Positions 4,134 through 17,347 of a stretch of 64,000 nucleotides of DNA are shown here, one piece after another; position 1 is the stretch's first letter; each line of letters opens with the position of its first letter. Source of the DNA: Capillimicrobium parvum (GTDB lineage Bacteria > Actinomycetota > Thermoleophilia > Solirubrobacterales > Solirubrobacteraceae); contig NZ_CP087164.1 in the NCBI RefSeq assembly GCF_021172045.1, positions 4,650,001 to 4,714,000 on the forward strand, written 5' to 3'. The translations under genes were made by a program, and so were the position numbers. The notes beneath the pieces were generated by a model that saw only the letters and a list, made by a program, of their open reading frames with translations, did not search any database and was not told where the DNA came from.

Positions 4134-6551
4134 ATGCCCGGCCGGGCCGGCGCGGTCGCGCTGGCCCTGACGGCCGCGCTGCTCGCCACCGCGCCCGCCG
4201 GCGCGGCAGCGGCGCGCTGCGCCCTGCGGCCCGTCCCGAGCTGGCGGTCGATCACCGGCGCCGCCCCGGGCCGGGCGCCGGCGACGGGCGAGCAGGTCGG
4301 CGCCTACCTGCAGGCGGTCGACGCCGCGAGCCCGCGTGTGGCCACCGGCGTCCTCGGCCGGTCGCCGCAGGGGCGTGCCCTTCCGTACGCGGTGATCGCC
4401 GAGCCGGGCACGCTCGCGCGGCTCGACCCGACCGCCGCGCGGCTGCGCGCCGTCCGCGACGGCACCGCCGCGGCGCGCACCGCGGCCGGGACGCCGCCGA
4501 TCGTCTGGCTCACCGCCGGGGTGCACGCCAACGAGCCGAGCGGCATCGACGCCGACATGGCCGTCGTCGCCGACCTCGCCGCAGGCCGGCTCTGCGGGCC
4601 GCTGCGCCGGCTCATCGTGGTCGTCGCCCCGCTGCAGAACCCTGACGGCCTGGCCGCGGGCACCCGCACGAACGCCGCCGGCTTCGACCTCAACCGCGAC
4701 TGGTTCGCCGCGACGCAGCCCGAGACGCGGGCGATGCTCGCGCTGCTGGCCCGCCTGCCGCCGACGGCGCTCGCCGACCAGCACGAGCAGGAGGGCTCGG
4801 CCTTCTTCTTCCCGCCGAACGCCGACCCCGTCCACCACGAGGTGCCCGCCCAGGTCCGGCGCACGATCGCCGGCCTGTACGCGCCTGCGCTGCGGCGCGC
4901 GTTCGACCGCGCCGGGCGCGAGCACGCGAGCTCGGGCACCTACGACCTCTTCTACATGGGCTACGCCGACACCGCCGCGACGACGCTGTTCGGCGCGGCC
5001 GGCATGACGTTCGAGCAGGGCGGGGCGGTGCCGTACGCCGAGCGCGTGGCCGGACACACGCTGGCCGCCGAGACCCTGCTGCGCGCGAGCGCCCGACATG
5101 CCGCGACGCTCGTCCGGCGCTGGAGCGCCGTGTGGCCGCAGGCCCGGGCCGAAGGCGCCCGCGGGGCACTGCAGCCCAACGCGCGCCCCGCAAGCGGCGG
5201 GCGCCCGCTCGAGCGGGTCCCGCCGGAGCCCGTGTACGCCTACCTCCTGCGCGCGGACGTCCACGGTGCGGACGCCGCCGCGCTCGCCGCCCGGCTCGGC
5301 GCCGCCGGGGTCCGGGTCGGCCGTCTCGCCCGCGCCACGCGCCTGCCGGCGTTCCATGCGTACGGCGCCTCCGCGGCCGGCGCGCGGACGCTGCCCGCGG
5401 GCACCTGGGTCGTCCCGCTCGCCCAGACCCGCAAGCACTGGGTCGAGGCCATGCTCGGCCAGGACGCCTATCCGCCCGTCGCGCGCTTCTACGACGTCTC
5501 GTCGTGGTCGAACCCGCTGCTCATGGGGCTCGCGGGCGGCTGGAGCGAACGGCCGTTGCCCGCCGGCTCCGTCACGTTCGCCCCCGCGCCGGCGCCGGTC
5601 CCGCCCCCGGACGCGCCCGCGTACGCGTTCGCCGGCGACAGCGCCGCCGCCCTCGGCCTCGCCGCCGACCTGCTCGCCACCGGCGCGACGGTCCTGCGCA
5701 CGCCGCGCTCCGGCGAGCTCGCCGCCACCGGCCCCCTGCCCGCCGACGTCCTCGCCCGCGCGGGCGCCCGCGGCGTCGCGCTGACCGCGGCCGGCGCCCC
5801 GCCGGCGAACGCCGTCGCCCTGCGGGTGCCGAAGGTCGCGCTGCTCGCCGACCTCGCGCCGGTCGTGCTCGGCCGCCCCGGCCTGGAGAACAGCACGGAG
5901 CACGAGCCGCATGCGTGGATGCGCTTCGTGCTGGCGCAGCGCCTCGGCCTCACCGCCGACGTGCTCGGCGACGCCGATCTCGCCGCGGGGCGGCTGCGCG
6001 ACGGCGGCTACACCGCGCTCGTCGTCGCCGGGACGCGGATTCCCGACGGCTCGCTCGGCGCCGCCGCGCTGGCCGAGGTCCGCGCGTTCGTGACGGCCGG
6101 GGGCACCTACGTCGGCGCCCGCCGCCCCGGGTTGGCCGCGGCCCGCGCCGCCGCGCTGACGACGGCCGCCGAGCGCTCCGCGCCCACGCTCGACGTGCCC
6201 GGCGCGACGTTCGCCGTCGCCGTCGACCGCGACGACCCCGTCGCATGGGGCAACGGGGGCACGCGCGGCTTCACGTTCGACGCGGGCGACCCGGTGCTCG
6301 AGGCCGGCGACGCCCACCCGGTGCTCCGCTTCGCGCGCGGCGGCGGGCTCGTCTCCGGCTACGCCCGCGACGCCGCCGTGCTCGGCGGGACGCCCGCCGT
6401 CCTCGACGCGACGCTCGGCGCCGGCCGGGTCGTCCTGTTCGCGGGCGACCCGAGCTTCCGCGCCTACGCCGAGGGCGCTCAGCGCCTGCTCGCCAACGCC
6501 CTCCTGGCGCCCCCCTTGCCGCCCGCCGCGGCCCGCACGCGCACGGGGTAG
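4134..6551 (+). CDS. Secreted zinc carboxypeptidase, M14 family, with long C-terminal region
   Basis: 805 residues with an N-terminal signal peptide (ALALTAALLATAPAGAAAA). The M14 zinc site is present: His131 and Glu134 in GVHANEPS, third ligand His217 in ADQHEQEG; NPDG, DLNRDW (substrate Arg) and the catalytic Glu294 in MTFEQGG are also seen. Beyond about residue 340 comes a C-terminal half resembling the extra domain of large secreted M14 peptidases. It begins one base after the glutaredoxin stop but has its own export signal. Its 3' end overlaps the convergent S55-like gene by 73 bases. Confidence 0.88.
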   Translation: MPGRAGAVALALTAALLATAPAGAAAARCALRPVPSWRSITGAAPGRAPATGEQVGAYLQAVDAASPRVATGVLGRSPQGRALPYAVIAEPGTLARLDPTAARLRAVRDGTAAARTAAGTPPIVWLTAGVHANEPSGIDADMAVVADLAAGRLCGPLRRLIVVVAPLQNPDGLAAGTRTNAAGFDLNRDWFAATQPETRAMLALLARLPPTALADQHEQEGSAFFFPPNADPVHHEVPAQVRRTIAGLYAPALRRAFDRAGREHASSGTYDLFYMGYADTAATTLFGAAGMTFEQGGAVPYAERVAGHTLAAETLLRASARHAATLVRRWSAVWPQARAEGARGALQPNARPASGGRPLERVPPEPVYAYLLRADVHGADAAALAARLGAAGVRVGRLARATRLPAFHAYGASAAGARTLPAGTWVVPLAQTRKHWVEAMLGQDAYPPVARFYDVSSWSNPLLMGLAGGWSERPLPAGSVTFAPAPAPVPPPDAPAYAFAGDSAAALGLAADLLATGATVLRTPRSGELAATGPLPADVLARAGARGVALTAAGAPPANAVALRVPKVALLADLAPVVLGRPGLENSTEHEPHAWMRFVLAQRLGLTADVLGDADLAAGRLRDGGYTALVVAGTRIPDGSLGAAALAEVRAFVTAGGTYVGARRPGLAAARAAALTTAAERSAPTLDVPGATFAVAVDRDDPVAWGNGGTRGFTFDAGDPVLEAGDAHPVLRFARGGGLVSGYARDAAVLGGTPAVLDATLGAGRVVLFAGDPSFRAYAEGAQRLLANALLAPPLPPAAARTRTG

Positions 6552-8221
6552 CTCGCGCTGCCGCTGATGCGCACGTCCGCGTCGCGGAAGAGCCGGCGGC
6601 CGGGCACGGGCTGCTCCGAGCCCGCGGGCCGCAGCCCGGAGTAGACGCCGTCCCAGCGCCCGATGCGGCTGATCTGGCGCGCCAGCCCGGCGAAGGTGGC
6701 CGGGGACGGCCGCGGCGTGTCGTCCGCCGCCACGGTGAGCACCGCGGCGTCCTCGATCGCGCCGTCGGCGGGGGTCCCGGAGACCCCGAGGTCGTAGCGC
6801 CCGCGCTCGGTGGAGCGCGGCACGCGCAGCGTGACCTGGCGCTCGAAGCGCGCCCCGCGGTAGCGCTGCAGCTGCAGCGTCAGGCGCGCGGACCGACCCG
6901 GGCGGACGACGCGCGGGCCGCGCACGCCGACGATGAACGCCTGCTCCAGCCCGGCGGCCACCTTCAGGTCGGCGTCGACGGACACGACGTGCGGCGCCTG
7001 CGCAGTGAACGCGTCGATGGCGGCGATCGCGTCGGCGAGGTCGATGGCGTACGGGCCGCCGGGGCTCGCGCCCCCGCCGAGATCGCCGACGTAGCGGTTG
7101 CAGAAGCCGGTCGGCTGCGAGAGCTCGCGCAGCCGGAACCGCACGCACATCTCGGCGCTCTGGCGCACCGGCGAGCCGTCGAGCGCGGCGAACCCGGCCT
7201 GCGCGACGGCCAACGGCGCGACCAGGGCCAGCGGCGACGCGCCGGACGGCAGCCCGACCTCGGTCTCGTCGGCGACCTGGACGTTGGACTCGCGCGCCGC
7301 GCCCCCGGCCTCGTTGCGGGCGAGCACGTGCACCGCGGTCTGCGGCGGCGGCGCGCCGATGAGCCCGGTGACGCCGAAGCGCCCGTCGAAGGTGATCGAG
7401 CCGAGGTCGTGCCCGGGCGCGGCGAGCTTCGTCGACGTGGCGCCCTCGATCCCGATCGGGTTGTCGATGACCGTGTACACCCACGCGTCCTGCAGCAGCA
7501 GCGAGCGCCGGCCGGTCGCGTCGAACGGATGCCCGAGCGCCCAGACCCGTGGGCCGTCGACGTACGTCACGGTGCCGACCGCTCCGGCCGCGAGGTCGCC
7601 GGAGGCCAGGCCGACGGCCATGGAGGCGCCGGGGACCAGCGGCTGGACGGGGAAGTCGCTGCCGACCGGGCCGGTCGGCACGGCCTGGAGCACGAGGCCC
7701 GCCTTCGCCGCCCGGCGGGCGAACGGGGCGAGGACCGCCGCATCGACGCCCCGGACGGCGATGGGCGTGGCGAGCGGGCGCACGGTCCCGCGCAGCGCGC
7801 GCGGCAGGGCGTGGCGCGCCGCCGGCGGGTCGGGCACAGGCGTGCCGAGCAGCGACTCGATCGGCGTGGCCAGCGCCACCTTGTTGCCGTAGTCGCCGGT
7901 GCCGAACGCGATCGCTCCCGCGATCCGGCCGCCGCAGATCACCGGGGCGCCCGAGAACCCGGAGGCGATCCCGGCGGGCTCCGCCGCGCCGCCGGAGGCG
8001 CGCACCAGGATGAGCGGGTCGCCGGCCACGGCATCGCCCGCGACGACGTCGATGACCTCCACGTCGAACGACGCGATGTCGACGCCGCGCACGACGGTCA
8101 GGCCGGTGCAGCGCAGGCCGCCGTGGACCTCGCCGAGCGGCATGATTGGGTCGGCCGCGACCGCCGTGCCGGTCGCGACGGCGAAGGCGGCCGCCGTGAT
8201 GGCGAGCAGGCGGAGGAGCAC
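6479..8221 (-). CDS. Secreted SpoIVB-like serine peptidase (S55 family)
   Basis: 580 residues, GTG start, signal peptide over residues 1-22 (LLAITAAAFAVATGTAVA). The N-terminal domain has MPLGEVHGGLRCTGLTVVRG, where SpoIVB proteins read GMxGxGYTV, and the nucleophile-type loop GIASGFSGAPVI near residue 90 followed by GRIAGAIAFG. In Firmicutes SpoIVB triggers sigma-K activation; in this non-endospore lineage the role is unknown. The C-terminal half (from about residue 300) has no recognised domain. Transcribed convergently to the M14 peptidase with overlapping ends. Confidence 0.7.
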   Translation of the reverse strand: MLLRLLAITAAAFAVATGTAVAADPIMPLGEVHGGLRCTGLTVVRGVDIASFDVEVIDVVAGDAVAGDPLILVRASGGAAEPAGIASGFSGAPVICGGRIAGAIAFGTGDYGNKVALATPIESLLGTPVPDPPAARHALPRALRGTVRPLATPIAVRGVDAAVLAPFARRAAKAGLVLQAVPTGPVGSDFPVQPLVPGASMAVGLASGDLAAGAVGTVTYVDGPRVWALGHPFDATGRRSLLLQDAWVYTVIDNPIGIEGATSTKLAAPGHDLGSITFDGRFGVTGLIGAPPPQTAVHVLARNEAGGAARESNVQVADETEVGLPSGASPLALVAPLAVAQAGFAALDGSPVRQSAEMCVRFRLRELSQPTGFCNRYVGDLGGGASPGGPYAIDLADAIAAIDAFTAQAPHVVSVDADLKVAAGLEQAFIVGVRGPRVVRPGRSARLTLQLQRYRGARFERQVTLRVPRSTERGRYDLGVSGTPADGAIEDAAVLTVAADDTPRPSPATFAGLARQISRIGRWDGVYSGLRPAGSEQPVPGRRLFRDADVRISGSASYPVRVRAAAGGKGGARRALASRR

Positions 8222-14027: not shown

Positions 14028-14276
14028 CTAGCGGTTGCCGCGCCGGCGCGTGATGATCGCCAGCCCGCCGCCGATGACGAACCCGGCGACGGCGGCGCCG
14101 ATCAGCACCTGCTTCTTGTGCGCCTCGATCTGCCGGCGCCAGTCGGTGGCGACCGTCACCTCGGCGCGCAGCTGGGCGATCGCCTCGCCGAGCTGCATGC
14201 GGTTGGACTCGATCGAGGCACGGATCTCCTGCGGCGTGCGCTGGCCTGACGCGATCTGACGGGGTGCGGGCGACAT
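14028..14276 (-). CDS. DUF3618 family small membrane protein
   Basis: 82 residues from the ATG at 14276. The N-terminal helix has the DUF3618 signature TPQEIRASIESNRMQLGEAI and a single membrane span (QVLIGAAVAGFVIGGGLAII) ends in basic RRRGNR. The ATG overlaps the upstream stop (ATGA). DUF3618 genes usually sit with holin-like and YtxH-like genes in actinobacterial envelope or stress clusters, as here. Last gene of the six-gene operon starting at the nitrilase. Confidence 0.85.
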   Translation of the reverse strand: MSPAPRQIASGQRTPQEIRASIESNRMQLGEAIAQLRAEVTVATDWRRQIEAHKKQVLIGAAVAGFVIGGGLAIITRRRGNR

Positions 14277-14683
14277 CAGCCGGAGACCGTCTCCTTGATC
14301 TTCTGCGCCTCTTCGATGGCGAGGTCCGGCGTGGGCGGTGCGCCGGCCTTGAACAGCTTGGAGGCGAGCCACCCGGCGATCCCGCCGACGATGAACAACA
14401 GCCCGGCGACCAGGAAGAAGCCCCAGAAGAACTGCGTGCCGCCCGCGGGCAGCGCCCACCAGGCCAGCCACGCGAACCCGTTGAGCAGGATCGACAGCCC
14501 GAAGATCGCGAAGATCGCCGCCGCGGCGCCGATCGCCGCGCCCTTGGCGAGCTTCTGGGCCTTCGCGGTGACCTCGGCCTTGGCGAGCTCGATCTCCTCG
14601 CGCACCAGCACCTGGGCGCGGTCGCTGATCTCCTGGATCGCCGCGGAGATCTGCTGCGGGCTGCCGGTGGGCTCAGGGGACAA
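14276..14683 (-). CDS. Holin-X-like (phage holin superfamily) membrane protein
   Basis: 135 residues. A cytoplasmic amphipathic N-terminal helix (DRAQVLVREEIELAKAEV) precedes two membrane spans (about residues 47-72 and 84-106), the arrangement of actinobacterial Holin-X proteins. Despite the name these are chromosomal envelope proteins, not lysis genes. Overlaps both neighbours by a few bases. Confidence 0.82.
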   Translation of the reverse strand: MSPEPTGSPQQISAAIQEISDRAQVLVREEIELAKAEVTAKAQKLAKGAAIGAAAAIFAIFGLSILLNGFAWLAWWALPAGGTQFFWGFFLVAGLLFIVGGIAGWLASKLFKAGAPPTPDLAIEEAQKIKETVSG

Positions 14684-14876
14684 TGCGCTTGAGGATCAGG
14701 GCGGCCAGAAGGCCGCCGGCGAACGCGGCGCCGACCTGGACCTCAGGTCGCTCGGCCGGCGATGGCGATGAAGACGAGGGCGACGCCGAGACGGAGCCGC
14801 CGGCGGTCGCCGGGCCGGACCCCGCCAGGGGCGGAGGAGCAGCGCTCGTCGGAGTGTGGAGCTGGTCGGTGCTCAC
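14673..14876 (-). CDS. Small single-span membrane protein
   Basis: 67 residues with a Pro/Ser-rich N-terminal half and one C-terminal hydrophobic span (VGAAFAGGLLAALILKRIV). GTG start directly abuts the TAA of the upstream gene and the end overlaps the holin-like gene by 11 bases, so it belongs to the operon. Family not recognised; it resembles the tail of YtxH/DUF883-like envelope proteins. Confidence 0.65.
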   Translation of the reverse strand: MSTDQLHTPTSAAPPPLAGSGPATAGGSVSASPSSSSPSPAERPEVQVGAAFAGGLLAALILKRIVP

Positions 14877-15011
14877 TTACTCGGGCGGGTCTTCCCCGAA
14901 CATGCGCCGCCAAATCAGCGTCGCCGCCTTCGTGGTGGCGATGGAGGCGAGCGCGCCGAGCCCTGCAAGCAGGCCGGCCCACGTCAGGCGCTTGACGACA
15001 TCGTTGCTCAT
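14877..15011 (-). CDS. Very small DUF4235-like membrane protein
   Basis: 44 residues: one membrane span (WAGLLAGLGALASIATTKAA) followed by LIWRRMFGEDPPE, which resembles the WRxxxGxxPPE motif of DUF4235 proteins, though it is half their usual length. Its ATG overlaps the TetR stop (ATGA), which supports it as a real translated gene in the operon. Confidence 0.6.
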   Translation of the reverse strand: MSNDVVKRLTWAGLLAGLGALASIATTKAATLIWRRMFGEDPPE

Positions 15012-15637
15012 GTGGCGCGAAGTCCTATCACGTCGAGGCCGTCGCAGATGGTGTCGATGATCTGCGTCTTCGCCGCTTCGACGTCCTCGGGCGACTGCGG
15101 CAGCAGCGCGAAGATCCATCCGGTGAGCACCTGCTCGATGGTGCCGTAGAAGGCGAGCGCGGCGAAATCGGGCGTCACGTCGGAGCGCAGCTCGCCCGCC
15201 TCCTGCGCCTTCGCGACCACCTCGGCGATGAGCGCGTAGGCCTCGCGGATCTTGCTCAGGTGCGTCCGGCCGAACGAGTTCGCCGCGCGCGTCACCTCGA
15301 CCACGATGACCTTCATCACGTCGGGATCGTGGCGGTAGGAGTCGACGATGAACGACGCGATCGCGTGCAGCTTGTCGCGCGCGCTGCCCTCCCCCGCGTC
15401 GACCTCCGCGATCACGTGCAGCAGGACGTTCCAGCGCTCGAGGAAGACGGTGTCGAGGATCTCGTCCTTGCTCGAGAAGTAGTGGTAGACGAGCCCGTAC
15501 GCGACGCCCGCCTCGTCCGCGATGTCGGAGACGCGGCACGCGTGGAAGCCCTGGCGGGCGAAGACGCGGACCGCCGCGTCGAGGATCTGGCGGCGCTTGT
15601 CGGCGGCTGCCTGGCTGCGGCTGGTCGTCGACGCCAT
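15008..15637 (-). CDS. TetR family regulator (FadR/AcrR-like)
   Basis: 209 residues. HTH region: RQILDAAVRVFARQGFHACR then VSDIADEAGVAYGLVYHYFSSKDEIL, a classic TetR DNA-binding domain. The ligand domain (VEVTRAANSFGRTHLSKIREAY) resembles acyl-CoA-sensing TetR proteins related to Bacillus FadR. Start overlaps the nitrilase stop (ATGA). The perfect palindrome at 16469-16490 ahead of the operon is the likely operator, making this an autorepressed operon. Confidence 0.88.
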   Translation of the reverse strand: MASTTSRSQAAADKRRQILDAAVRVFARQGFHACRVSDIADEAGVAYGLVYHYFSSKDEILDTVFLERWNVLLHVIAEVDAGEGSARDKLHAIASFIVDSYRHDPDVMKVIVVEVTRAANSFGRTHLSKIREAYALIAEVVAKAQEAGELRSDVTPDFAALAFYGTIEQVLTGWIFALLPQSPEDVEAAKTQIIDTICDGLDVIGLRAT

Positions 15638-16449
15638 CAGGCCTGCGCCTCGACCAGCCGGGCGTTGGCGAGCGACGGCAGCTCGCGGCGGATGCGCGCC
15701 TGTGCCTCGAGATCGAGGTCGGCGGCGACGTGGCCCACGCGGTCGGGCGCCGTGGCCAGCACGAGCCCCCACGGATCGACGATGAGCGACCGTCCGCCCG
15801 AGCGCATGCCGCCCGGGTGCGAGCCGATCTGGTTGGCGGCGACGACGAACGCCTGCTCCTCGATCGCGCGGGCGCGGACGAGGACCTCCCAGTGGTCGCG
15901 CGTCGTCGCCAGCGTGAACGCGGCGGGCACGAGCAGGATGCGCGCGCCGCGCATGGCGAGTTCACGGTAGAGCTCGGGGAACCGCAGGTCGTAGCAGATG
16001 GACATCCCGAGTTGGACGCCGCCGGCGGTGGCCGAGGTGACGATCTCGTCGCCCGGCTCCTCGGCCGCCGACTCGCGGTACTCGGTGCCGTCGACGACCA
16101 CGTCGAACATGTGGATCTTGCGGTAGGCCGCCTTGATCTCGCCGTCCGGCCCGATGTGCAGCGAGGTGTTGCGCAGCTTCTCCCTGCCGTCGACGCGCTC
16201 GGAGATCGAGCCGGCGACGAGGTCGACGCCGAGCTCGCGGGCGATGTCGCGCGCCCACGTGACGACCGGCCCGTCGAGCGGCTCGGCGGCGGCGCGCAGG
16301 TCGTCGGGCGTGCCGAGCGCCATCCACTTCTCGGGCAGGACGATCAGCTCGGCCCCGCCGGCCGCGGCGGCGCGCACGTGCTCGTCGGCCGCGCGGACGT
16401 TGGCGGCGACGTCGGCTGTCGCGTTCAGCTGGACTGCGGCGGCCCTCAA
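15637..16449 (-). CDS. Carbon-nitrogen hydrolase (nitrilase superfamily, Nit1/Nit2-like)
   Basis: 270 residues from the TTG at 16449, chosen because a GAGGGAGC Shine-Dalgarno sequence lies just upstream and the longer frame only adds non-family residues. Catalytic triad: Glu40 (VLPEKW), Lys111 (AYRKIHMFD), Cys152 (SICYDLRFPELYR). This resembles Nit1/Nit2 (omega-amidase or deaminated-glutathione amidase) enzymes. First gene of an operon with TetR and four small envelope genes. Confidence 0.88.
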   Translation of the reverse strand: MRAAAVQLNATADVAANVRAADEHVRAAAAGGAELIVLPEKWMALGTPDDLRAAAEPLDGPVVTWARDIARELGVDLVAGSISERVDGREKLRNTSLHIGPDGEIKAAYRKIHMFDVVVDGTEYRESAAEEPGDEIVTSATAGGVQLGMSICYDLRFPELYRELAMRGARILLVPAAFTLATTRDHWEVLVRARAIEEQAFVVAANQIGSHPGGMRSGGRSLIVDPWGLVLATAPDRVGHVAADLDLEAQARIRRELPSLANARLVEAQA

Positions 16450-16468: not shown

Positions 16469-16490
16469 TCGTTGACTGGCGAGTCAACGA
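16469..16490. promoter_or_regulatory. Perfect 22-bp palindrome, probable TetR operator
   Basis: Arms TCGTTGACT and AGTCAACGA are exact reverse complements around a GGCG spacer. It lies in the 55-base gap between the divergent nitrilase/TetR operon and the DUF2804 gene. Each arm contains TTGACT, a good -35 hexamer, so a bound TetR would block both promoters at once. Confidence 0.75.
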
Positions 16491-16504
16491 TACCGTTCGC
16501 GCGG

Positions 16505-17347
16505 ATGCTTCCCTGGCGCACCGAGGATCATTCATCCGCCCGCCCGGTCGACCTCGGCAACCTCCCGGCGCGGCGCGAGGGGCGGGCGCTCAAGCGGTGG
16601 CGGTACGTCGGCGTGTTCGGCCCGGAGCGGATGCTGTGCGTGGGGCTCGCCCACGTCGGCGGGGTGCCTCAGGCCTGGTGGGCGGTGTGGGATCGCGGCG
16701 CCGGCTCCCTGCGCGAGCGCACGATCTTCGCCCGCCCGCGCGCGATCGTCCGGTTCGGCCACGGCCCCGGCCGCGTGACGGTGCGCGACCGCGACGTCCG
16801 CATCGACCTCGAGCTCGACGAGGGGCGCGGCGTCGAGACCGTCTGCCCCCATGGCGGCGGCACCGGCTGGATCTGGACCCGAAAGCAGGCCGGGATCGCC
16901 GCGCGCGGCAGCGTGCGGCTCGGCGAGCGCGCGTTCGCGGTCGACGGCCTCGCGGTGGTCGACGACACCGCCGGCTACCACGCCCGCCACACCGCCTGGC
17001 GCTGGTCGGCGGGGGTCGGCCGCACCGCCGACGGGCAGGTCGCGGGCTGGAACCTCGTCAGCGGCGTCAACGACCCGCCGCACGACAGCGAGCGCACCGT
17101 GTGGCTGGACGGCGCCCCGCGCGAGGCCGGTCCGTGCACCTTCGCCGACGACCTCTCGGCGGTCCGCACCGCCGACGGCGGCGACCTCGCGTTCCGCGCC
17201 GAGGCGACCCGCGAGCGCCACGACGAGCTGCTCCTCGTGCGCAGCGACTACCGCCAGCCGTTCGGCACGTTCTCCGGCGTCCTGCCGGGCGGCGCGGGGC
17301 TCGCGGAGGGCTTCGGGGTCATGGAGGACCATCGCGCCCGCTGGTGA
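16505..17347 (+). CDS. DUF2804 domain-containing protein
   Basis: 280 residues from ATG 16505; longer upstream frames overlap the nitrilase gene. It shows DUF2804 traits: repeated Trp/Gly/Arg beta-strand blocks (RWRYVGVFG, GWIWTRKQAG, HTAWRWSAGVG, GWNLVSGVNDP). The family is thought to form a lipocalin-like barrel; function unknown. It shares the palindromic promoter region with the nitrilase operon. Its stop touches the stop of the convergent permease gene. Confidence 0.85.
   Translation: MLPWRTEDHSSARPVDLGNLPARREGRALKRWRYVGVFGPERMLCVGLAHVGGVPQAWWAVWDRGAGSLRERTIFARPRAIVRFGHGPGRVTVRDRDVRIDLELDEGRGVETVCPHGGGTGWIWTRKQAGIAARGSVRLGERAFAVDGLAVVDDTAGYHARHTAWRWSAGVGRTADGQVAGWNLVSGVNDPPHDSERTVWLDGAPREAGPCTFADDLSAVRTADGGDLAFRAEATRERHDELLLVRSDYRQPFGTFSGVLPGGAGLAEGFGVMEDHRARW

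What the first reader, a model, noticed from the sequence alone, without database searches (positions are those of the whole stretch)
16469..16490. Perfect palindrome with two divergent -35 boxes controls an operon of envelope genes
A 22-bp exact palindrome with TTGACT in each arm sits between a TetR-containing operon and DUF2804. The operon joins a nitrilase, TetR and four small membrane proteins (DUF4235-like, unnamed, holin-X-like, DUF3618) by ATGA overlaps. A nitrilase co-regulated with envelope proteins is odd.
Basis: partly seen in the sequence, partly recalled or inferred. Interest (0 to 1): 0.5.

Follow-up and report, generated by a model that had tools for sequence, protein, structure and literature searches.

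The report
Fatty-acid breakdown switch beside membrane genes
The palindrome is most likely the DNA docking site of the regulator encoded in the operon beside it; copies of the site stand in front of fat-burning genes in an order of soil bacteria, and the regulator's gene sits in a conserved operon with an amidase and small membrane-protein genes.

Summary
The palindrome is real but not exact: 16469-16490 pairs in 10 of 11 positions (core TTGACT-N4-AGTCAA, 16472-16487). It is best read as a repressor operator, not a pair of -35 boxes. The host (placed in Solirubrobacteraceae) has 5 exact and 2 one-mismatch copies. The other exact copies precede two acyl-CoA dehydrogenase loci, etfBA and a 3-hydroxyacyl-CoA dehydrogenase; the one-mismatch copies precede sucCD and biotin carboxylase. 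The TetR is FadR-like by sequence and predicted fold.

Of 61 genomes of the order examined, 49 of 50 with the TetR ortholog hold an exact site, against 2 of 11 without it. Of 61 further sites in relatives, 46 have a beta-oxidation homologue starting within 300 bp. At most nitrilase/TetR loci examined a -10-like hexamer lies upstream of or on the operator's edge, so the repressor would cover the transcription start.

The operon is real and conserved: nitrilase-TetR-DUF4235-(small protein)-holin-X-DUF3618.

Verdict: a FadR-type regulon with its own operator and an unusual self-regulated operon, for which my searches of open-licence papers found no report. DNA binding, acyl-CoA as inducer and a role of the membrane genes are inferred.

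The parts
16472..16487 (.). Operator core TTGACT-N4-AGTCAA of the FadR-like TetR (extended 22-bp form 16469-16490, one mismatched pair at 16478/16481); binding inferred
16487..16492 (-). -10-like hexamer TATCGT overlapping the upstream edge of the operator for the nitrilase/TetR operon (inferred promoter)
   Evidence: TANNNT at -20..-1 of the operator is common in orthologous loci; no transcription start mapped
15637..16449 (-). Nitrilase-superfamily amidase (CN_hydrolase; best NCBIfam model deaminated glutathione amidase, below cut-off); start taken as TTG 16449, after the operator
15008..15637 (-). FadR-like TetR repressor (TetR_N and YsiA/FadR-type C-terminal domain)
14877..15011 (-). Small DUF4235-like protein, ATGA overlap with TetR
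   Evidence: (below cut-off)
14673..14876 (-). 67-aa protein with a hydrophobic C-terminus by eye, no Pfam family; homologue at the same place in 23 of 43 loci with enough flank
14276..14683 (-). Holin-X family membrane protein (PF07332, Phage_holin_3_6)
14028..14276 (-). DUF3618 protein with a hydrophobic C-terminal segment by eye
16505..17347 (+). DUF2804 protein, divergent across the operator; control by the operator possible, not shown
   Evidence: divergent neighbour in 25 of 45 loci

Best explanation
The palindrome is the autoregulatory operator of the FadR-like TetR encoded at 15008-15637. A TetR dimer would bind TTGACT-N4-AGTCAA here and at copies in front of acyl-CoA dehydrogenase, etfBA and hydroxyacyl-CoA dehydrogenase genes, and block RNA polymerase. 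At most of the nitrilase/TetR, acyl-CoA dehydrogenase and hydroxyacyl-CoA dehydrogenase promoters examined a -10-like hexamer lies just upstream of the operator, so the repressor would cover the start of transcription; at some etfB promoters the operator may cover the -35 position instead. When long-chain fatty acids enter the cell, acyl-CoA would bind the C-terminal pocket and release the repressor, inducing beta-oxidation together with the TetR operon, which also carries a Nit-type amidase and a DUF4235/holin-X/DUF3618 membrane set. Shown in silico: the sites, their neighbours, co-occurrence with the TetR gene, synteny and the FadR-like fold. Inferred: binding, repression, acyl-CoA as inducer, one transcript through the membrane genes.
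For: Sites: 5 exact in the genome, control 0; 7 against 1 at up to one mismatch. Own neighbours: two acyl-CoA dehydrogenase loci, etfBA, a 3-hydroxyacyl-CoA dehydrogenase, sucCD, biotin carboxylase. Relatives: of 61 exact sites in 21 genomes, taken from the cut list without the TetR loci seen there, 46 have a beta-oxidation homologue starting within 300 bp (acyl-CoA dehydrogenase c 23, etfB 15, hydroxyacyl-CoA dehydrogenase 5, FadB 2, acyl-CoA dehydrogenase a 1), one a nitrilase start, 14 neither; random positions in the same loci 1075 of 11600. Attribution to this TetR: a site with at most 2 mismatches in the 231-bp control region of 35 of 47 relatives' TetR loci, reversed-arm control 0 of 47; in L129 and L138, where nitrilase is not next to TetR, a one-mismatch site lies directly before TetR and none before nitrilase; exact site in 49 of 50 genomes with the ortholog and 2 of 11 without, Fisher P 3e-8, not corrected for kinship. 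Regulator: best PDB sequence hit is B. subtilis FadR (E 1.9e-19). The AlphaFold2 model (pLDDT 90) has FadR of B. subtilis or B. halodurans as eight of its nine best fold matches, a stearoyl-CoA complex first; the ninth, 1vi0, aligns like the B. subtilis FadR chain. Best NCBIfam model is FadR, below cut-off. Operon: nitrilase to TetR gap at most 60 bp in 44 of 47 (one-base overlap in 25), TetR to DUF4235 at most 60 bp in 39 of 49, window included. Thermus FadR likewise has sites at its own operon, etf and acyl-CoA dehydrogenase genes (PMC5597230, passages).
Against: 12 of 47 TetR control regions have no site with at most 2 mismatches. Of five loci with enough flank where nitrilase is absent or not adjacent, two keep a one-mismatch site before TetR (L129, L138), L116 has one of two mismatches there plus others of that grade elsewhere, L140 has none, and L101 has its only one (two mismatches) before nitrilase, not TetR. 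G006 and G038 hold 5 and 2 exact sites, G038's before an acyl-CoA dehydrogenase and etfB, but no ortholog was found. The TetR scores 101 bits against a cut-off of 200 for the Bacillus FadR equivalog, and two other TetR C-terminal Pfam models pass their cut-offs. Some sites precede genes not of beta-oxidation, such as ribD and a sigma-70 factor. Some of the 46 homologues are distant (30-37% to the query), and the sites of related genomes are not independent. No binding or expression data.
Confidence: 0.85

Rival explanations
1. The palindrome is a promoter element: two TTGACT -35 boxes drive divergent transcription of the nitrilase operon and DUF2804, with no dispersed regulon.
For: TTGACT fits the -35 consensus (recalled). 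In etfB promoters 8 of 16 have a TANNNT hexamer 21-25 bases after the start of TTGACT; the control motif TNNNAT scores 7 of 16 there, in part because hexamers such as TACCAT fit both. Window and two same-genus relatives have a -10-like hexamer on the DUF2804 side, at a short 13-bp spacing.
Against: Only 1 of 31 nitrilase/TetR promoters has a -10-like hexamer at -35 spacing. Both arms with N4 spacing occur far above the reversed control and before beta-oxidation genes.
Confidence: 0.05
2. The operator belongs to another regulator of beta-oxidation, and the TetR operon is only one more target.
For: G006 and G038 have sites without a detectable ortholog; L101 has its only near-site before nitrilase rather than TetR; the genome has 43 other TetR-like matches.
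Against: 49 of 50 genomes with the ortholog have the site against 2 of 11 without. The protein is FadR-like in sequence and fold. The next best TetR in the genome is far off (E 1.6e-12 against 5.7e-135).
Confidence: 0.08
3. The membrane genes are mere neighbours: only nitrilase and TetR are controlled by the operator, and the membrane set has its own promoter and role.
For: In three genomes of one family about 1.3 kb separate TetR and DUF4235. In Actinoplanes the same three families were raised by expression of a stress sigma factor (PMC11205660, passages).
Against: DUF4235 and holin-X follow TetR on the same strand in 43 of 43 loci with enough flank; ATGA overlap in the window and gaps of at most 60 bp in 39 of 49.
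Confidence: 0.35

Closest known systems
TetR-type FadR of Bacillus subtilis and B. halodurans
   Same: TetR repressor; best sequence and fold matches; acyl-CoA-dependent control of beta-oxidation in B. subtilis is stated in PMC6449355 (passages)
   Different: 24-26% identity in the fold alignments; below NCBIfam's cut-off for that equivalog; operator differs (Bacillus operator recalled, not looked up)
FadR of Thermus thermophilus
   Same: Sites at beta-oxidation genes, etf and its own operon; palindromic operator (PMC5597230, passages)
   Different: Consensus TTRNACYNRGTNYAA fits none of 87 exact sites examined here; lower fold match (TM 0.64-0.65); its own operon is listed as an oxidoreductase, a hypothetical protein and fadR
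FadRSa of Sulfolobus acidocaldarius
   Same: TetR-type repressor of fatty-acid genes with a 16-bp dyad motif; acyl-CoA abrogates DNA binding (PMC6449355, passages)
   Different: Represses one 30-kb gene cluster; archaeal; lower fold match than Bacillus FadR
DUF4235/DUF3618/holin-X clusters of actinobacteria (Actinoplanes ACSP50_3380-3382)
   Same: Same three families side by side
   Different: There raised by expression of a stress sigma factor, with a BrkB/YihY-family gene next to them (PMC11205660, passages); here downstream of a FadR-like gene

Membership tests
TetR-type FadR | TetR helix-turn-helix domain | tested here: met
   PF00440 67.1 bits, cut-off 24
TetR-type FadR | YsiA/FadR-type C-terminal domain and fold | tested here: met
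   PF08359 31.2 bits, cut-off 21, though PF17938 and PF17932 also pass; eight of the nine best fold matches are labelled FadR
Bacillus FadR equivalog (NCBIfam NF053878) | curated score of 200 bits | tested here: not met
   101.3 bits; so it is called FadR-like, not a member of this equivalog
TetR-type FadR | operators in front of beta-oxidation genes | tested here: met
   sites only, not binding: own genome; relatives 46 of 61
TetR-type FadR | operator in its own control region | tested here: met
   window; 35 of 47 relatives' loci
Thermus FadR | operator TTRNACYNRGTNYAA | tested here: not met
   0 of 87 exact sites match it within 6 bp (consensus)
TetR-type FadR | release from DNA by long-chain acyl-CoA | not testable with these tools
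   needs gel shift with acyl-CoA
Deaminated glutathione amidase (Nit1-type) | NCBIfam curated score | tested here: not met
   178 of 500 and 159.6 of 355 bits; nitrilase homolog 2 and NitFhit are the best PDB sequence hits

The most novel reading that the evidence does not exclude
Across Solirubrobacterales a FadR-like repressor wires fatty-acid catabolism to a membrane module (DUF4235, holin-X, DUF3618) and a metabolite-repair amidase in one acyl-CoA-responsive operon, so that the cell adapts its membrane, perhaps in the manner of the E. coli yqjDE stress genes, whenever it burns lipid.
Probability: 0.3. Interest if true: 0.6.

Novelty: new variant of a known kind. Interest (0 to 1): 0.45.

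Why it matters
It gives a predicted operator and regulon for lipid catabolism in a little studied order of bacteria (my recall), most of whose records are metagenome-assembled, and ties three membrane-protein families without known function to fatty-acid metabolism. Both predictions can be tested, the first with one purified protein.

Tried and rejected
Two -35 boxes: rejected for the nitrilase side by promoter geometry across relatives; not excluded on the DUF2804 side or for some etfB promoters, where the control motif is also high.

The first pattern, with N10 spacing, was wrong and was corrected to N4. The first DUF2804 frame given to Pfam was out of frame and was corrected.

Two-mismatch hits TTGACC-N4-GGTCAA in L022 and L023 lie inside predicted genes of a repeated segment and were not counted as operators. 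The other two-mismatch hits were not examined for context.

A strict -10 search (TATAAT, up to two mismatches, A and T required) found no single position above 8% of 81 promoters and was replaced by TANNNT, so that motif was chosen after looking at the sequences. Its control TNNNAT gives 4 and 3 of 31 (nitrilase/TetR) and 2 and 1 of 26 (acyl-CoA dehydrogenase) in the bins -20..-11 and -10..-1.

Rows dropped: one search left out 3 of 50 loci too short upstream (the 50 loci are 49 relatives plus a second contig of G003); one search used 43, 45 or 46 of 50 by available flank; one search used only sites with at most one mismatch and enough flank; one search's place list was cut, so the 61 sites come from 21 of the relatives. 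L176 ends in nitrilase and is probably the upstream half of the G017 TetR locus.

Papers: no paper holds the operator pattern or five of its spelled forms; one search for Solirubrobacter, TetR, fatty acid and regulon listed 3 papers, none on this by title and start of abstract; searches were seen as listings. They cover open-licence PMC only.

Full report
What is there. The stretch 16469-16490 reads TCGTTGACTGGCGAGTCAACGA. It pairs in 10 of 11 positions; 16478/16481 is G/G, so it is not exact. Its core is TTGACT-N4-AGTCAA. On the minus strand follow a nitrilase-superfamily gene, a TetR gene, a DUF4235-like gene, a 67-codon gene, a holin-X gene and a DUF3618 gene. On the plus strand DUF2804 starts at 16505, 17 bases after the core. 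The nitrilase start is taken as TTG 16449; the longer frame from 16521 would run through the operator.

More than chance. The genome (5.95 Mb, one contig) has 5 exact cores, control 0, and 7 against 1 at up to one mismatch. In 61 genomes of the order the column sums to 157 exact sites against 1 control site. In a sample of 198 genomes of the phylum, 6 of 6 members of the order have it, 2 of 12 others of the class, and 8 of the 180 remaining; the control pattern occurs in 16 of the 192 outside the order. So outside the order the motif is at background.

What the sites stand before. In the host the other exact sites precede an acyl-CoA dehydrogenase pair (L016), etfBA (L017), a 3-hydroxyacyl-CoA dehydrogenase (L018), and an acyl-CoA dehydrogenase with a FadB-like gene further down (L019); the one-mismatch sites precede sucCD (L020) and biotin carboxylase (L021) (families, where only biotin carboxylase passes a curated cut-off). 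In 21 relatives, 46 of 61 sites have a beta-oxidation homologue starting within 300 bp; random positions in the same loci give 1075 of 11600. One more is a nitrilase start. The 14 left over include a thiolase by Pfam (L151) and two that begin like thiolases by eye (L172, L194), methylmalonyl-CoA mutase (L197), a MaoC domain (L182), an acyl-CoA dehydrogenase as second gene (L166; L169 similar by eye), ribD (L153; L163 begins alike and L171 has the same neighbour by eye), a CMAS methyltransferase on the other side of L194 (L203 similar by eye), a sigma-70 factor (L149) and two small proteins that look like membrane proteins (L173, L188; no Pfam for L188).

Which regulator. The TetR has an ortholog in 50 of 61 genomes, its own included (relatives 57-86% identity, E 6.1e-71 or better); the next matches are at E 1.2e-15 or weaker. 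Exact sites occur in 49 of 50 genomes with it and 2 of 11 without (Fisher P 3e-8). Five of the 11 belong to one genus and two to another, and several are incomplete, so the P value overstates the case. The exceptions are G037, whose TetR control region has a one-mismatch site (L129), and G006 and G038, with sites but no ortholog found, also by profile. A site of at most 2 mismatches lies in the control region of 35 of 47 TetR loci, control 0 of 47. Where nitrilase is absent or not adjacent the picture is mixed: before TetR in L129 and L138 and, weakly, L116; none in L140; before nitrilase in L101. Sequence, NCBIfam and predicted fold all point to the TetR-type FadR, but the score for the Bacillus equivalog is half the cut-off.

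How it would work. A TANNNT hexamer starts 11-20 or 1-10 bases upstream of the operator in 19 and 12 of 31 nitrilase/TetR promoters (window included), 19 and 2 of 26 acyl-CoA dehydrogenase promoters, and 6 and 0 of 6 hydroxyacyl-CoA dehydrogenase promoters; the control motif gives 4 and 3, and 2 and 1, for the first two. So the repressor would sit at the start site. In the window this is TATCGT at the operator's edge. For etfB 8 of 16 have the hexamer at 21-25 and 6 of 16 at 31-35, but the control motif scores 7 and 6, in part because hexamers such as TACCAT fit both. By analogy with FadRSa and B. subtilis FadR (PMC6449355, passages), acyl-CoA should release it; I could not test this.

The operon. 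Among loci with enough flank, DUF4235 and holin-X follow TetR in 43 of 43 and DUF3618 in 42 of 43, in this order; nitrilase is next upstream in 41 of 46; DUF2804 diverges in 25 of 45. Nitrilase and TetR overlap by one base in 25 of 47 and lie within 60 bp in 44 of 47 (starts chosen by rule, so approximate). The same three membrane families stand together in Actinoplanes and were raised by expression of a stress sigma factor (PMC11205660, passages). PF07332 also gives a signal in E. coli; that this is YqjE is my recall. YqjD and ElaB there bring ribosomes to the membrane in stationary phase, and the function of YqjE is unknown (PMC10746276, passages). A YqjDE-like role here is speculation.

Host. 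The nearest titled relatives are MAGs named Solirubrobacteraceae or Solirubrobacterales; named strains in the list include Conexibacter, Svornostia and Solirubrobacter. So the host is placed in Solirubrobacteraceae by inference.

Verdict. A known kind of regulator in a lineage for which I found no report in open-licence PMC, with a distinct operator and an unusual, conserved operon.

Noticed in passing
L022 about 5141-7548 and L023 about 5564-8103: Two neighbouring genes seem to occur twice in the genome: the second has the same printed start and length in both, and both firsts hold the same two-mismatch hit. This suggests a duplication; identity was not measured.
   Followed up: no
L165, L166, L169 (sites at 2530, 2579, 2513): In three genomes of one family a variant site with centre TTGT (or ACAA) stands near acyl-CoA dehydrogenase genes; it may belong to a related regulator.
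   Followed up: partly
L153, L163, L171: In three relatives the site lies near ribD-like genes; riboflavin supply for the flavin enzymes of beta-oxidation would make sense.
   Followed up: partly
L217, L228, L237, L248: Records titled Bifidobacterium breve MAG carry close relatives of this TetR, otherwise found mainly in records titled Solirubrobacterales or Actinomycetota; the titles look wrong.
   Followed up: no
L291 (G000:C1:3592364-3592714): A second holin-X gene in the genome scores higher (135 bits) than the one in the window (74.2 bits).
   Followed up: no
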